Shown in pieces: positions 1 to 20,641 of a stretch of DNA of 30,062 nt (its first letter is position 1; each line of letters opens with the position of its first letter). The DNA lies in the IMG/VR virus record IMGVR_UViG_3300008050_000195, positions 1 through 30,062 of that record; one strand, given 5' to 3'. The DNA comes from a virus. Made by a program: the position numbers and the translations under genes. Under the pieces are notes generated by a model. It saw only the letters and a list, made by a program, of their open reading frames with translations, had not been told where the DNA came from and ran no database searches.

Positions 1-2354
1 CAGGAGCAGGAGCAGGAGGTGCAGGAGGAGCAACAGGAGCAGGAGCAGGAGGTGCAGGAGGAGCAACAGGAGCAGGAGCAGGAGGTGCAGGAGGAGCAAC
101 AGGAGCAGGAGCAGGAGGTGCAGGAGGAGCAACAGGAACAGGAACAGGAACAATCACAGGAACAGGAGGAACAACAGAACCAGGAACAACAGATCCTATT
201 GGAGGGGGACTCGTTGAACCGACAGGCACAGGAGCACCCACAGGGGGACAACAGGGTGAAGTTCCAAGAGGAGGATCTTCTCAAGGAGGAGGAGGAGGCA
301 GCCCAACACCAATTCCACCAGGAGGACCCATCCGTATGCCACCAGAAACAGGAAGACCAAAGTACCCAATAGGTCCAGGAGGTCTTCCTCGACCACTCTC
401 ATTGGAGAAATACCTTGCCGAAGAGTGGATGCCAGAACCTGCTAGCATGTCTGAGCCTATTACGTCTTTAGTTCTTGCAGATCCAGCTTTCAATCCTTAT
501 GATATGAAATATAATTATGGAATTGAGGCAAATCAGGATATATTAGAGTTAGCAACAACACAGACTCCTAATAGATTAGGATTAGATCCTAATGGAATAT
601 ACGCAACCTCCTTAAGTTTAGTTCTAAAAGATGTGCTATCTTCAAAGGGGGCAAATACTTTTGTACCATTTAATGGGGTTACTATTGGGTCATTTTTATA
701 TCAAACTAATTTAGTTAAAAACTCTCTCAGCCAGCAAACAATAAATAGTTTAGATTTTTTAAAGAATCAAAATCTTACATCGTATAATATAGGTGCTTAT
801 CTATTAGCTGCAATTAAACAGGCAACCTACAAGGGTGTTATTGGTGATTATAATCCGCGCTTGTTTAGTACTCTTGCCGAAGGAGCGGCATCGGTATTTC
901 CAAATGGACTTCCTACGTTTTCTGATCCAATAACAAATAGAAATACTGCTCTTACCCTCATAAGAAATAAGAAAATAAGTTTAAATCCACAAAAATATAC
1001 AGAGTCTGGGGATGCCTCTAGATTTGCACAAAGGCACTATATCGTCCCCACAGATATTCGTCTTCAGGCTTCCGTAGTTCGGAGAGACTCCTCTATATGT
1101 GGTGTAAAGTTTAAAGCTGATAGTGCTATAAGTGTTGTAAAAAGAGATGGCACAGAGGAAGATGTTTTTGAGACGAATGAGTTTTTGCCCGTAGTTCGTA
1201 GAGACTCCTCTATACGCGGTGTAGCTCTTTATTCGGATAGGGATAAAGCATATAAATTTAATTTATCTGAACTATCCGTAATTTTAGGTCTATTAGGAGA
1301 TCGTTCTACTAATCCAGATGCGGTTAGTGAATATAGTGTTGACCTCAATGTAAGTGCTACCTTTGGTACTGAGGTGACTGATGGTGTTTCCATACCTGAT
1401 GCTATGCTGTACTCCTTAGTAGGTAGTAGCATTACCGACCAACCTCCCTCAACCCCTGATGGGCTTCTAAGAACTACTACAGCCAAGTACAAAAGGGTAT
1501 GGAAGGAGGGGGACGACAGTGATGATGATTTTAATTCTACAGTAGCTGCCTTCTCAGGTCCTAGACAAAACTTCTACATACCAGCAGATGATCCTGTTTG
1601 GAATTTTATTTTAGAAGCTAACGCCACGGACTCTGAATTTTATATAGAAGTTACTTATAACGATTTAGATATCCCATTAGATGGAAATGTATACCCTAGA
1701 AGAATACTAACCGACTTCTGTATATTCCCCACAGATAAAACTAATTTTAATATATTCCAAGGGAGATCTATATTGAACTCCTACCCTGAGGGGGAAACAC
1801 TAACTAGGAGTATGTCTTTTATAATGAGCCCATTCTCCGATACTAAAAGTAGGGTTTCTACTAAGCCAGTTAAAGCTACAACTGGATTAAATGCGGCCAG
1901 TGAGCCTGATTTGAATGCTATAAACTTTACCAAAGCATTCTCTGCTGGAGATAAAATAAAGTTATTATCTAAAACAGGAGAAAGCTTCTCATCTAAAAAA
2001 TCTATATTAGGTAAGTTTTTAACTACTCTTTCTGATATAGATACTAATTATGATTTACAAGATGGGAACTTAGGTAAAAGACTTCCTATGGGAGATCTAT
2101 TTTCCTTTATGGATATAACTGATATGCTTGATTTATCTATGGGCCAATTATCTTCGGGTATAATAAATAGCTTATTTTTCGGGCAGTTAAATGGTATCAA
2201 ATTATTCTCTGTAAAGAAGACAGATTCAGAGAAGACCTATATATCTAGTACCCGATTAAAAAGTGGAGGAGCATCCTTGGAGAGCGACCAGAATCAAAAG
2301 ACAGTCCCTAAAATAGGATACTTCCCCCCAGCCTTTAAGGACATACTTTGGTAA
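1..2354 (+). CDS. Large Gly-rich protein, 5' end outside window, probably virion-associated
   Basis: The frame is already open at base 3 and runs to TAA at 2352-2354, so the true start lies upstream; the ATG at 336 is internal. The first ~110 visible residues are low complexity: four copies of an 11-residue Gly/Ala/Thr unit, then Gly-Thr, Gly-Gly and Pro-Gly stretches, which look like a flexible linker. The remaining ~670 residues look globular, rich in Ser, Thr, Asn and Asp, with no membrane segment. They hold a duplicated VVRRDSSI-[CR]-GV motif. I recognise no family. The PAAR tail-tip gene starts 5 bases after the stop, and head genes follow, so a baseplate, hub or other virion role is plausible but inferred only from context. 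Confidence 0.75.
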   Translation, partial: GAGAGGAGGATGAGAGGAGGATGAGAGGAGGATGAGAGGAGGATGTGTGTITGTGGTTEPGTTDPIGGGLVEPTGTGAPTGGQQGEVPRGGSSQGGGGGSPTPIPPGGPIRMPPETGRPKYPIGPGGLPRPLSLEKYLAEEWMPEPASMSEPITSLVLADPAFNPYDMKYNYGIEANQDILELATTQTPNRLGLDPNGIYATSLSLVLKDVLSSKGANTFVPFNGVTIGSFLYQTNLVKNSLSQQTINSLDFLKNQNLTSYNIGAYLLAAIKQATYKGVIGDYNPRLFSTLAEGAASVFPNGLPTFSDPITNRNTALTLIRNKKISLNPQKYTESGDASRFAQRHYIVPTDIRLQASVVRRDSSICGVKFKADSAISVVKRDGTEEDVFETNEFLPVVRRDSSIRGVALYSDRDKAYKFNLSELSVILGLLGDRSTNPDAVSEYSVDLNVSATFGTEVTDGVSIPDAMLYSLVGSSITDQPPSTPDGLLRTTTAKYKRVWKEGDDSDDDFNSTVAAFSGPRQNFYIPADDPVWNFILEANATDSEFYIEVTYNDLDIPLDGNVYPRRILTDFCIFPTDKTNFNIFQGRSILNSYPEGETLTRSMSFIMSPFSDTKSRVSTKPVKATTGLNAASEPDLNAINFTKAFSAGDKIKLLSKTGESFSSKKSILGKFLTTLSDIDTNYDLQDGNLGKRLPMGDLFSFMDITDMLDLSMGQLSSGIINSLFFGQLNGIKLFSVKKTDSEKTYISSTRLKSGGASLESDQNQKTVPKIGYFPPAFKDILW
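3..134 (+). repeat. Four perfect 33-bp tandem repeats coding GAGAGGAGGAT
   Basis: Units at 3-35, 36-68, 69-101 and 102-134 are identical and in frame with the large upstream-truncated gene, each coding GAGAGGAGGAT. The array continues as degenerate GGA-ACA (Gly-Thr) codons to about 170. The array may extend beyond the left edge. Read one frame off it gives a Gln/Glu-rich peptide, which is a shadow. Confidence 0.9.
1074..1223 (+). repeat. Diverged 33-bp direct repeat pair inside the first gene
   Basis: Bases 1074-1106 and 1191-1223 match at 30 of 33 positions and code VVRRDSSICGV and VVRRDSSIRGV. They start 117 bases (39 codons) apart, so both are in frame. A weaker SVVKRDG copy lies between them. 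This suggests duplication of a strand-turn unit within the protein. Confidence 0.8.
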
Positions 2355-2359
2355 ACTAG

Positions 2360-2650
2360 ATGCCAGCAGTTACAAGATATGGCGATGCAGACGTTACTCA
2401 CTGTAGCACCCCCTACAGGAAGGGGAGATCGTCCAATGTTATAGCTAATGGTTTAGGTATATCAAGACAAAGAGATCATAATTCAGTACACTTGCTTCCT
2501 GGAAGCCCATGACCTTCCCACACTGCCCCTATTGCCGTTGGCAGTAAATCAGTTTTTGTAAATGGAAGAGGATGTGGAAGGGTAGGAGACCGTATTGCTG
2601 GGTGTACTAGAGTTGCTACGGGGTCAAAGAATGTTTTTGCGGGAGGATAG
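2360..2650 (+). pseudogene. PAAR-domain tail spike tip protein interrupted by in-frame TGA
   Basis: From ATG 2360 the frame reads MPAVTRYGDADVTHCS and continues through SSNVIANGLGISRQRD to TGA at 2510-2512 (codon 51). The same frame then resumes as PSHTAPIAVGSKSVFVNG, GCGRVGDRIAGC and ends VATGSKNVFAGG with TAG at 2648-2650. Both halves fit the PAAR family: a start like MPAVTRxGD, two copies of S-x-x-V-x-x-N-G followed by R-x-x-D, and an ending with GS-x-NVFAG. The total of 96 codons is a normal PAAR length. PAAR proteins cap the membrane-piercing spike of contractile tails (T4 gp5.4). Nothing is missing except the codon now read as TGA, where Cys or Trp is one base away. No ATG or GTG lies in frame soon after the stop. 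It may be a sequencing error, a recent knock-out or a readthrough product. Confidence 0.8.
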
Positions 2651-2753: not shown

Positions 2754-3239
2754 ATGTCAGATCGTATTTTAGTTGAAAACAGTTTTGTAGAATCCCTTAT
2801 TAAAAACGCTGCTTGGGACGCAGCTCGTGTCTCTCTAAAAGAGGGAGCGGTTGTAGAGGAAGTTGCCGTTACTTGTCCTTTGTGTGAGTCCACTATTGCT
2901 GAAGAGATTACAGACAAGCAATTGAAGGCTCATTTAGATCAAATTAGTGAAGCTTTAGATAGTATTGGCGAGGCTAAGAAGGCTAAGTTGAAGGAGAAGG
3001 CTAAGAAGGTTAAGGAGATGGAGGACGAAGAGGAAGAGGAGGAGGAGCTTGAGGAGTTTCGGGGGCGAGTTGTACCACCAGAAGATATGGGATTCCCACC
3101 CGAGAAAGGGGAGGACGAAGACGAAGACGAAGAGGACGAAGACGAAGATGAAGAGGATGTAGATGAGAAGTCCAAAAAGAAAGAGTCTAAAGTTATGAAG
3201 AAGGTAAAAGAACTTAAGGCTTCTGCAAAGGGTAAGTGA
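2754..3239 (+). CDS. Acidic-tailed prohead core candidate protein
   Basis: I start at ATG 2754 because AAGGA lies 8 bases upstream; a GTG at 2727 in the same frame lacks such a site. The 161-residue product begins MSDRILVENSFVESLIK and carries one CPLC motif near residue 42. A Lys/Glu-rich helix follows, then a run of alternating Asp and Glu residues and a Lys-rich end. The strong charge blocks suggest a core or scaffold component, like the small charged prohead core proteins gp67 and gp68 that precede gene 21 in T4. That parallel rests on position and composition, not on a sequence match I can prove. It opens the head operon; the next gene starts 9 bases after its stop. Confidence 0.7.
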   Translation: MSDRILVENSFVESLIKNAAWDAARVSLKEGAVVEEVAVTCPLCESTIAEEITDKQLKAHLDQISEALDSIGEAKKAKLKEKAKKVKEMEDEEEEEEELEEFRGRVVPPEDMGFPPEKGEDEDEDEEDEDEDEEDVDEKSKKKESKVMKKVKELKASAKGK

Positions 3240-3248
3240 AAATAAATT

Positions 3249-3713
3249 ATGGAATTTTCAGTTGGAGATTTTGCAGAAAATTTGTTAGCACAAGACAAGA
3301 TTGAAAAGAGGGCCACTACAATTTCTGCGCCCTCTTTTCAATCTGATACTTCCATATATTCCCCCCGAATTACTGATCAGGTGGACATATCTGATGTTGA
3401 GGTTCCTAACGATTTTGTTCAAAGTATCGTGGAAAATAGGGAGGTAGTGTTAGAAGAGACCCCAGCCCCCCCTGCTCCCGTTGTTGAGTCTAACGATTTC
3501 GCGAATATGATGTTAGAAATTAGAGATCTATTGGTAGAAGTTAAGCAAACCCTTTCTGAAATTAATACGGTGGGTGCGTTTACGCCCAATTTAGCACCTA
3601 AGAAAAAGAAGGCTAAAAAGAAAGTTAAAAAGGCTCCCAAAAAACAAGAAGACGAAGAAGAAGATATTGTAGAGCTTTTAATGAAAAAGCTTAGAAGTAA
3701 GGTGGTTGACTGA
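3249..3713 (+). CDS. Head-operon protein with Lys-rich tail (prohead core candidate)
   Basis: This 154-residue protein begins MEFSVGDFAENLLAQDK. It has a disordered-looking middle with ISDVEVPNDFVQSIVE and a Pro-rich stretch, then a helical segment (residues ~82-105, MMLEIRDLLVEVKQTLSEI). It ends in a Lys-rich block (KKKKAKKKVKKAPKK) followed by acidic residues. There is no good Shine-Dalgarno site before the ATG, so translation is probably coupled to the gene 9 bases upstream. Its TGA stop shares one base with the next ATG. Position just before the basic protein, protease and scaffold genes points to a prohead core role; I do not recognise the family with certainty. Confidence 0.7.
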   Translation: MEFSVGDFAENLLAQDKIEKRATTISAPSFQSDTSIYSPRITDQVDISDVEVPNDFVQSIVENREVVLEETPAPPAPVVESNDFANMMLEIRDLLVEVKQTLSEINTVGAFTPNLAPKKKKAKKKVKKAPKKQEDEEEDIVELLMKKLRSKVVD

Positions 3714-18025: not shown

Positions 18026-19048
18026 ATGCAAGAACTAGAAAACCTGTATAGCGGCTTAAATCCCTCCTGCTCCAATTCTCTTTGTGAAGGATGTTCCATC
18101 CTAAAGGAAAGCAAGCCTGAACATTCTTACTTAGATTACGAAAAACTTAGAGAAGGACCAGTCCTATTTCTATCTGATTCCCTGAAGTATAAGTTTGGGA
18201 AGCTTATACCCTTTTCTAAAAAGGAAATGAATCTACTTCTAAAGCACTACCCAGAAGACGCTCAGTTTGCTGCATCTGTTAAATGTCCCTCCGTCAAAGA
18301 GGGCGATATGACACCAGTAAACATGAAGTTGTGTCGTGAGCATTTAGACGCTACTATTGATAAGGTTAAACCCAAGTTAGTTTTTACTTGTGGGAATTTG
18401 TCAATGAAAATGCTCATTAAGAAAAGTGGAATAACAAGTAAGCGAGGTAGCTCTTTCCCATACTCCACCAATTCTGGGCATGAGTGTACCGTTGTCCCCA
18501 TCTTTCACCCATACGCTGTGATAAAAGAACCCAGACACTCATATTTGTTTGAGACGGATATTAAAAATGCGTATGATAAGTATATTCTAGGCAACACAGG
18601 TTCAGGTGATTTCTCTTATGAGGTACTTACAACTCCTGAAGAAGTAGTCTCCTTGGGAGAGAAGCTTAAACAGTGTAAGGAAACTTTGGCCGTGGACTTA
18701 GAAACTACAGGTCTTAATTTTCTTCGAGATAAGATAATGAGCATATCCATATCCTCTGAGGATGGTACTTGGGTAATCCCTTGGGATCACAAGGACAGTC
18801 CCTTCAAGGAGGGCGAGGAAGATTCTAAAACAATGCGGAAGTGGGTTAAAATAATTTTAGAGAACCCCTATAATAAAAAAGTATTCCACAACGCCAAGTT
18901 TGATCTTAAGTTTTTGCTGAATCATGGGATAAATGTAGAGTGTGTGTGGGACACTAAGATTATGCACCACTTTATCAATGAGACGGCACCAAAGTCCTTG
19001 ATGGACTTGGTTAAGCTTTATTTCTCGAATGAATTGGAAAACCTTTAA
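18026..19048 (+). CDS. Polymerase piece 1: Fe-S UDG-like domain plus start of 3'-5' exonuclease
   Basis: Residues 1-190 follow family 4 uracil-DNA glycosylase: Cys20-x2-Cys23, Cys87 and Cys103 (C-x15-C) fit its 4Fe-4S pattern. FTCGN and FHPYA fit the 'lG' and HPS regions. The catalytic GExPG motif is replaced by LSDS, so glycosylase activity is doubtful and the domain may be structural or DNA-binding. Residues 200-340 begin a family A proofreading domain: Exo I LAVDLETTG (Asp224, Glu226) and Exo II FHNAKFDLKFLL (Asn289, Asp293). The ORF stops between Exo II and Exo III with TAATG, and the next ORF continues the same domain. The ATG lies 6 bases after a TATAAT box without a ribosome site, implying a leaderless mRNA. 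Confidence 0.85.
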   Translation: MQELENLYSGLNPSCSNSLCEGCSILKESKPEHSYLDYEKLREGPVLFLSDSLKYKFGKLIPFSKKEMNLLLKHYPEDAQFAASVKCPSVKEGDMTPVNMKLCREHLDATIDKVKPKLVFTCGNLSMKMLIKKSGITSKRGSSFPYSTNSGHECTVVPIFHPYAVIKEPRHSYLFETDIKNAYDKYILGNTGSGDFSYEVLTTPEEVVSLGEKLKQCKETLAVDLETTGLNFLRDKIMSISISSEDGTWVIPWDHKDSPFKEGEEDSKTMRKWVKIILENPYNKKVFHNAKFDLKFLLNHGINVECVWDTKIMHHFINETAPKSLMDLVKLYFSNELENL

Positions 19049-19527
19049 TGCTTACTATAAGTAACCCGAAAACTTTCAAATGGTCGGAGATGTCACTCTC
19101 TGATTGTTGCGAAGGTAACGCTATGGATACTTACTTTACTTTGAAACTTTTTAATCTTATTGAAGATAAGATTAAGGACCTAGGGATGGGTAAGATTACG
19201 TCCGAATTAATAATGCCAGCTCTGACTCCGTTTTCTGAGATGGAGTTTAATGGGATGCATGTAAGCGAGGGCAGGTTAGGATCTGTGGCAAGGCAACTAT
19301 CCTCTTCAAATATAGAAGAGGAGGATAACCTTTATACCTTTGACCAAGTTAGTACGTCCGATAATATGGCATCTAATAAAGATCTTATTGATATACTATA
19401 CACAAGGGAGGGGTCTTTTGAGGTGTACCCCCCTGATAGAACTCCGAAGGGTAAGCCTTCTGTGTCCGCACCCACTCTTAAATTATTATTGTCCCAAGTA
19501 GAAGAGGAGCTAGAAAGCCGTGGGTAA
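19048..19527 (+). CDS. Polymerase piece 2: end of exonuclease and first part of polymerase domain
   Basis: This 159-residue ORF resumes where piece 1 stops, one frame back. DCCEGNAMDTYFTLKLF (residues 19-35) aligns with the Exo III region of family A enzymes, normally Tyr-x3-Asp-Ala. Here the metal-binding Asp is Asn24 and the Tyr is Cys20, so proofreading is probably weak or lost. ALTPFSEMEFNGMHV (residues ~57-71) is the classic 'L-x-x-M-E-x-x-G' entry to the polymerase domain, and TPKGKPSVSAPTLKLLL matches the later 'T-x-x-G-x-x-S' segment. The start shares one base with the preceding stop, giving coupled translation. The end overlaps piece 3 by 8 bases. The polypeptides presumably assemble, as proposed for split phage polymerases. 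Confidence 0.83.
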   Translation: MLTISNPKTFKWSEMSLSDCCEGNAMDTYFTLKLFNLIEDKIKDLGMGKITSELIMPALTPFSEMEFNGMHVSEGRLGSVARQLSSSNIEEEDNLYTFDQVSTSDNMASNKDLIDILYTREGSFEVYPPDRTPKGKPSVSAPTLKLLLSQVEEELESRG

Positions 19528-20641
19528 ATGGAACTACAGGGATGAAGGTAAGAAGATAAGCTTATCAGTGTTGAAGGAGAAGAGTACGGGGGAACTTAGG
19601 AATCTTCAAGGGTTTTTGAAGGGGTTACTATCCCTCCGTAAATCGCAAAAGTTAGAGAAGACTTATGTGGTAGGTACGAAGAAGGCTATTGAGTACAACG
19701 AAACGCCAAGAGTGTATGTGGACTACAGGTTTGATGGAACATCCACAGGTCGCTTGTCATGCGCTGCCTACACTGCTCAGAAGCCTATGGGGGTGTCTTT
19801 TCATACGTTACCCAGAGATAAAGACAATAACATTAGAAGCCTGTTCACATGTCCCAAGGACCATTGCTTTGTTACTGTGGATTACTCTGCTATGGAGCTT
19901 CGTGTTCTAGCCCACATTGCCAAAGAAGGTAACATGCAGAAAGCTTTTAATGAGGGCGTAGATCTGCACACATATACTGCCAAACTCCTATTTAACAAAG
20001 AGAATATTACTAAAGATGAGAGACAAATTGCAAAAACTGTATCCTTCCTTATTGTCTACGGGGGTGGTGCTTTTAATTTGGCAGAGGTAACGGGCATATC
20101 CTTATCTAGAGCTAAGAAAATTATTAATAACTTTAAGAACGTATATCCTGGGATCTTTTCTTACATGGATTTCGTTAATAATTTTATCAAAACAAATGAG
20201 TATGCCTATACCATATTTCATAGGAGAAGGAACCTACCTGACATTAGATCAAAAGATTTTTCAGTACAGAACAGATCCCTACGTCAAGGTCTTAATTTTA
20301 CTATCCAATCTACTGCCTCTGATATTCTTTTATGTGGGCTTCTAGGCACCTATAGACGGTTTAACGAAGAGAATATAAATGCTCATCTCGTAGCTACGGT
20401 TCACGATAGTTTAGAGGTTATTTGTCACAAAGATAGTTTGTCCGATTGTTTAGAAATTATTTATGATGAGATGGTTAACTACCCTTTTATCAAGGATACT
20501 TTTAACATTAATTTTGATGTACCTCTAAAAATTGATGCAGAGGTTGGCTTTTCTTTTGGGGATGGGGTCGAGGTAGACTTTAATAAAGAGGGAGTACCCC
20601 AGAACATAGGGGATGTAATGAAATATATGGATAGTAAATGA
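19520..20641 (+). CDS. Polymerase piece 3: family A palm and fingers catalytic core
   Basis: The 373-residue ORF holds all three polymerase motifs: A, VTVDYSAMELRVLAHIA (Asp121, Glu126); B, RQIAKTVSFLIVYGG (Arg168, Lys172, Phe176, Tyr180); C, ATVHDSLEV (His295, Asp296). In motif C the usual Glu after the Asp is Ser297. RFDGTSTGRLSC before motif A is also typical. Phe176 at the nucleotide-selecting position is as in E. coli Pol I; T7 has Tyr. The start must be GTG 19520, since TAG lies three codons before it in frame; GAGGAG stands 10 bases upstream. The stop overlaps thyX by 4 bases (ATGA). This is the replicative polymerase by context: no family B gp43 is seen. Confidence 0.93.
   Translation: MGKWNYRDEGKKISLSVLKEKSTGELRNLQGFLKGLLSLRKSQKLEKTYVVGTKKAIEYNETPRVYVDYRFDGTSTGRLSCAAYTAQKPMGVSFHTLPRDKDNNIRSLFTCPKDHCFVTVDYSAMELRVLAHIAKEGNMQKAFNEGVDLHTYTAKLLFNKENITKDERQIAKTVSFLIVYGGGAFNLAEVTGISLSRAKKIINNFKNVYPGIFSYMDFVNNFIKTNEYAYTIFHRRRNLPDIRSKDFSVQNRSLRQGLNFTIQSTASDILLCGLLGTYRRFNEENINAHLVATVHDSLEVICHKDSLSDCLEIIYDEMVNYPFIKDTFNINFDVPLKIDAEVGFSFGDGVEVDFNKEGVPQNIGDVMKYMDSK

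What the first reader, a model, noticed from the sequence alone, without database searches (positions are those of the whole stretch)
2360..2650. PAAR spike-tip gene with a lone in-frame TGA
Both halves are well preserved around codon 51, so the break is recent, artefactual or bypassed. TGA serves as a normal stop in other genes here (e.g. at 3237 and 3711), so recoding is not general. A readthrough-made tip protein, needed in about one copy per virion, would be an elegant dosage control. Loss would imply a spare PAAR elsewhere.
Basis: partly seen in the sequence, partly recalled or inferred. Interest (0 to 1): 0.62.

Follow-up and report, generated by a model that had tools for sequence, protein, structure and literature searches.

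The report
Phage spike-tip gene with in-frame UGA
In one marine phage species the gene for the needle-like tail tip carries a UGA stop codon exactly where its relatives encode a metal-holding cysteine; this is either a recent knock-out or a hint that the phage inserts selenocysteine there, and the sequence data alone cannot decide.

Summary
ORF 2360-2650 is a PAAR spike-tip gene with a lone in-frame TGA at codon 51 (2510-2512). Three other IMG/VR contigs of the same species (99.8-99.9% identical, several differences elsewhere) carry the same TGA and an identical gene, so it is not a sequencing error. TGA is absent from 9,209 other codons of the window.

Two readings remain: (1) a recently fixed premature stop; (2) UGA decoded in place, most specifically as selenocysteine. 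Favouring (2): the exact Cys column (4 of 37 possible one-step nonsense changes), an undecayed 3' half, at most one PAAR gene per record in relatives, and a hairpin that meets the published bacterial SECIS model. Against (2): 10-31% of synonymous recodings meet that model too, no diverged homolog has TGA, no tRNA-Sec was found, and the host is unknown. I put the stop at about 0.5, selenocysteine about 0.27, other decoding about 0.18. Leaky readthrough as dosage control has no positive support.

The parts
2360..2650 (+). PAAR spike-tip gene, 96 codons plus TAG, with one in-frame TGA
   Evidence: fold matches 4jiw, 4jiv, 4ku0
2510..2512 (+). in-frame TGA at codon 51, the column that is Cys in homologs
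2522..2553 (+). SECIS-like stem-loop: 7-bp hairpin 2530-2546 with loop GUU at 2537-2539, on a 4-bp lower helix 2522-2525 / 2550-2553
   Evidence: weak, because 10-31% of synonymous recodings pass the same rule
2399..2401 (+). codon of His14, possible further metal ligand
   Evidence: near-invariant column; ligand role inferred from PMC10715212
2519..2521 (+). codon of His54, presumed metal ligand of the [C/H]xxH motif
   Evidence: invariant column; ligand role inferred from PMC10715212
2603..2605 (+). codon of Cys82, possible further metal ligand
   Evidence: ligand role inferred from PMC10715212

Best explanation
A marine T4-like myophage has a single known PAAR tip gene whose codon for the presumed zinc-ligand Cys51 has become TGA, in all four records seen. 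Most likely, narrowly, this is a recently fixed premature stop. Termination would leave a 50-residue N-terminal half without the H54/C82 side of the metal site, so virions would have a blunt or otherwise capped spike, unless low UGA readthrough supplies a few tips. Shown: the TGA, its column, its presence in four records, the intact 3' half. Inferred: that termination really happens and that the phage tolerates it.
For: No diverged homolog carries TGA at this column; the sister genome L068 and all other homologs have a sense codon there. Pattern scans found TGA at this column only in this species. TGA is an ordinary stop in 7 genes of the window. No tRNA, tRNA-Sec or suppressor tRNA in the window or sister contigs. 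SECIS criteria are met by 10-31% of synonymous recodings, so the hairpin may be chance, and the 91-nt fold is ordinary (z=0.34). The one host hint for a distant relative is a Prochlorococcus cell without SelA/SelB above cut-off. PAAR genes at this locus diverge strongly between relatives, which suggests some tolerance.
Against: A random stop falls on a Cys codon in only 4 of 37 one-step changes, and on codon 51 in 1 of 37. The 3' half shows no decay: 67-78% identity to homologs against 53-63% for the 5' half. The TGA is in 4 of 4 records. Larger relatives show one PAAR or none, so no spare is evident. PAAR and its metal ligands are needed in the EAEC T6SS (PMC10715212).
Confidence: 0.5

Rival explanations
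1. Selenoprotein: the host's SelA/SelB/tRNA-Sec system decodes UGA-51 as selenocysteine, directed by a SECIS hairpin just downstream, giving a full-length tip in which Sec replaces the Cys metal ligand.
For: TGA exactly at the near-invariant Cys column; TAA/TAG pattern at that column found nothing in IMG/VR; hairpin meets the published bacterial SECIS model in loop, stem, spacing and energy, whereas 15 of 17 Cys homologs tested do not; intact 3' half; same TGA in four records.
Against: The SECIS rule passes for 10% (strict) to 31% (loose) of synonymous recodings and for 9-14 of 90 Cys codons in the window. No diverged TGA homolog. No second recoded gene seen. Host unknown; the only hint lacks SelA/SelB. 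Known selenoproteins are mostly redox enzymes (PMC1088965), not structural tips.
Confidence: 0.27
2. Leaky readthrough: near-cognate tRNAs read the weak UGAC context at a few percent, making few full-length tips from many initiations.
For: The context is UGAC, regarded as a weak terminator (general knowledge); C follows only 4 of 45 TGA stops in long ORFs of the clade and none of the 7 in the window. One tip per spike is needed (3:1 gp5C to gp5.4; PMC7600766).
Against: Trp, the usual readthrough residue, occurs in no homolog at a presumed ligand position; C41A in EAEC PAAR is non-functional. Does not explain why the stop is at a Cys codon.
Confidence: 0.12
3. UGA read as cysteine by an opal tRNA-Cys of the host, restoring the ancestral residue.
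For: Opal-anticodon selC-like tRNA-Cys exists in Desulfobacterales (PMC7609411). Explains the Cys column without a SECIS.
Against: No such tRNA in the window, sister contigs or relatives. Host unknown.
Confidence: 0.06
4. Sequencing or assembly error.
For: None found; reads could not be inspected.
Against: Four records that differ elsewhere agree on the whole gene.
Confidence: 0.02

Closest known systems
T4 gp5.4 and other PAAR-repeat tip proteins (PDB 4ku0, 4jiw, 4jiv; Pfam PF05488)
   Same: Fold, length, near-invariant residues and metal-ligand motif
   Different: An in-frame UGA stands at the presumed ligand Cys, seen in no other homolog
PAAR genes of marine cyanophages P-HM1, P-HM2, S-H34 and others
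   Same: Closest cultured relatives of the gene, 59-65% identical over full length
   Different: The phage itself is not close to them: its head protein is about 31% identical to cyanophage ones
Bacterial selenoproteins with Cys/Sec pairs and bSECIS (Sargasso Sea set, PMC1088965; model in PMC13188914)
   Same: TGA paired with Cys in homologs; downstream hairpin within the model
   Different: Not shown to be decoded; a single species; a structural virion protein and not a redox enzyme
Basilisk-like Bacillus phages reported to encode a tRNA-Sec (PMC6145125)
   Same: A phage link to selenocysteine
   Different: There a tRNA and not a selenoprotein; no tRNA-Sec reached the cut-off here or in larger relatives

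Membership tests
PAAR-repeat spike-tip proteins | PAAR_motif profile match above the curated cut-off | tested here: met
   PF05488, 29.1 bits, cut-off 27, on the part after the TGA
PAAR-repeat spike-tip proteins | PAAR fold | tested here: met
   AlphaFold model of the read-through protein, pLDDT 86, TM about 0.8 to 4jiw, 4jiv, 4ku0
PAAR-repeat spike-tip proteins | Conserved metal-ligand residues at the apex | tested here: inconclusive
   H14, H54 and C82 present; the Cys51 codon is TGA
PAAR-repeat spike-tip proteins | Full-length protein is made and mounted on the spike | not testable with these tools
   Needs proteomics
Bacterial selenoprotein | TGA aligned with Cys in homologs | tested here: met
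   25 of 26 aligned rows, the window counted as Cys; L077 is gapped there
Bacterial selenoprotein | bSECIS hairpin after the TGA | tested here: inconclusive
   All published constraints met, but 10-31% of synonymous recodings also meet them
Bacterial selenoprotein | TGA conserved in at least two different sequences | tested here: inconclusive
   Four records, but one species with identical genes
Bacterial selenoprotein | Organism has SelA, SelB and tRNA-Sec | tested here: inconclusive
   Host unknown; a Prochlorococcus cell holding a 57% relative lacks SelA and SelB above cut-off; no tRNA-Sec above cut-off in the phage records
Phage with generally reassigned UGA | TGA used as a sense codon in many genes | tested here: not met
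   0 TGA in 9,209 codons; 7 genes end in TGA
Split gene with re-initiation after the stop | In-frame start codon after the TGA | tested here: not met
   No ATG, GTG or TTG between 2513 and 2647, only two ATT

The most novel reading that the evidence does not exclude
A phage virion selenoprotein: a PAAR spike tip whose metal-ligand cysteine is replaced by selenocysteine, decoded by the host's Sec machinery through a SECIS hairpin inside the phage gene.
Probability: 0.27. Interest if true: 0.88.

Novelty: new variant of a known kind. Interest (0 to 1): 0.5.

Why it matters
If UGA-51 is decoded as selenocysteine, it would be a selenoprotein in a phage particle, of which the papers searched gave no example, with selenium in a structural metal site; it would tie the phage to Sec-using hosts and show that phage annotation truncates such genes. 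If it is a stop, it is a natural knock-out of the tail tip in a circulating marine phage and makes the need for the PAAR tip in contractile phages directly testable.

Tried and rejected
General UGA reassignment. Sequencing error. Re-initiation of a split tip protein. A second PAAR in the window or on the sister contig. Other TGA-at-Cys PAARs in IMG/VR: pattern hits L059, L063, L174 and L175 were translated and are chance matches. Other recoded genes in about 170 related loci: only wrong-frame or gene-boundary stops in the output shown; the output was truncated and the list read by eye. dN/dS of the 3' half: dS is saturated against the nearest homologs, so it shows only absence of decay. SNPs among the four records all fall outside this gene, so they say nothing on selection in it. 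Locating the samples from IMG identifiers through the literature gave nothing useful. The profile alignment to 4jiw puts column 51 slightly off the first His of its HPPH motif, while the pairwise phmmer alignments of L068 to 4jiw, 4jiv and the T4-like 9f4b put it on that His, so the ligand assignment is inferred.

Full report
What is there. The window is a 30-kb virus record of a T4-like myophage (major head protein, head maturation protease, head-tail adaptor, sheath stabiliser, DNA polymerase, ribonucleotide reductase, thymidylate synthase). ORF 2360-2650 starts 5 nt after the stop of the upstream gene and has one in-frame TGA at codon 51. It is a PAAR gene by Pfam, by homology to cyanophage PAAR genes and by predicted fold.

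It is not an error. Three IMG/VR contigs of the same species carry an identical 291-nt gene. They differ from the window at 14 substitution sites and two 1-base indels elsewhere, so the four records are not one assembly. The search that found them would also have found a strain with a sense codon; none appeared.

The codon sits on the presumed metal-ligand cysteine. In a 26-row alignment (window read as Cys) the column is Cys in every row but L077, which has a gap there. The motif is mostly CPxH. In pairwise alignments the Cys of the sister protein falls on the first His of HPPH in c1882 (4jiw), of HPSH in VCA0105 (4jiv) and of HDTH in the T4-like tip 9f4b; the profile alignment is shifted slightly. 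PAAR tips bind zinc through three His and one Cys in the V. cholerae, E. coli CFT073 and T4 proteins, and through C41, H46, C74 and probably H14 in EAEC PAAR, where C41A does not complement (PMC10715212). That column 51 is a metal ligand here is a good inference, not a measurement.

How surprising is the position? With codon 51 set to Cys, 37 single-base changes create a stop in this gene; four hit a Cys codon and one hits codon 51. At the same column in IMG/VR, the TGA pattern found only this species plus chance hits, and the TAA/TAG pattern found nothing. Before priors this favours a Cys-related cause over a random stop by roughly tenfold.

Is the sequence beyond the TGA alive? The 3' half is 67-78% identical to homologs, the 5' half 53-63%, with lower dN in the 3' half. 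There is no frameshift and the proper stop is in place. So the TGA is either young or translated. dS is saturated, so this cannot separate the two.

SECIS test. The published bacterial model (PMC13188914) asks for a 3-9 nt apical loop, a 4-16 bp upper stem, a G in the first two loop positions, 16-37 nt spacing and MFE at or below -7.5. The sequence after the TGA folds into a 7-bp hairpin UAUUGCC-GUU-GGCAGUA, with the loop 24 nt after the UGA and -9.8 to -14.3 kcal/mol depending on the stretch folded. It meets all constraints. But 31% of synonymous recodings meet the loose rule and 10% a stricter G[G/U] rule, as do 14 and 9 of the 90 Cys codons tested in the window. Rule plus equal energy together gives 3-7% for stretches of 45-60 nt; at 66 nt the observed fold no longer meets the rule, and the 91-nt fold is ordinary (z=0.34). 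The stretch lengths and the strict rule were my choices, made while looking at the data. I count this as weak support.

Machinery and host. No tRNA was found in the window or its sister contigs. Two larger relatives and the phage contig in a Prochlorococcus single-cell genome (head protein 57% identical to the window's) carry tRNAs only for Arg, Leu, Ile and, in two of them, Asn in the stretches read. No tRNA-Sec reached the cut-off. That single-cell genome has no SelA or SelB above the curated cut-off. No psbA was found in the virus records of the clade, so a cyanobacterial host for the window phage is not established. The closest PAARs in cultured phages are from cyanophages, but cultured marine T4-like phages are mostly cyanophages. 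The host is unknown.

Need for the gene. Relatives with contigs of 48-130 kb show one PAAR each, or none detectable. No spare is evident, though most of this genome is unseen. PAAR sequences at this locus diverge strongly between relatives, which suggests fast replacement and some tolerance.

Weighing. Premature stops in conserved genes are known events, although I saw no other convincing one on the forward strand of the related loci in the output shown. I know of no phage selenoprotein, and the library searches showed none; they cover open-licence papers only. The specific evidence (Cys column, intact 3' half, presence in four records, hairpin) favours decoding; the prior favours a stop. I end near 0.5 for a stop, 0.27 for Sec, 0.12 for leaky readthrough, 0.06 for Cys and 0.02 for error. 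These are judgements, not computed posteriors. General UGA reassignment and re-initiation at a common start codon are excluded.

The dosage-control idea lacks support, because a metal-ligand position is a poor place for an unspecified residue. The better novel reading is a candidate Sec-PAAR.

Noticed in passing
window 18026-20641: A family-A DNA polymerase is split over three overlapping ORFs (340, 159 and 373 aa; all match phrog_17). The same junctions recur in L179, and the 159-aa and polymerase ORFs also in L182 and L185, so the split is conserved in the clade and not a sequencing error.
   Followed up: partly
window 1-150: A tandem repeat encoding GAGAGGAGGAT opens the window; the corresponding array in a sister contig (L176, upstream of the same gene) is longer and begins a protein with a low-complexity N-terminal region.
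   Followed up: no
L173 (QCKN01000003.1): A 130-kb contig in Prochlorococcus single-cell genome AG-409-P03 carries a head protein 57% identical to this phage's, a possible host link for the wider clade.
   Followed up: partly
L067-L172, region upstream of the head protease gene: PAAR genes at the same locus differ strongly between relatives whose proteases are 76-86% identical, and some (L094, L096, L126) are barely recognisable, which suggests fast replacement of the tip.
   Followed up: no
window 399-1317 and 3022-3449: Most differences among the four near-identical records lie in the gene upstream of PAAR and in the two genes downstream, several of them non-synonymous.
   Followed up: no
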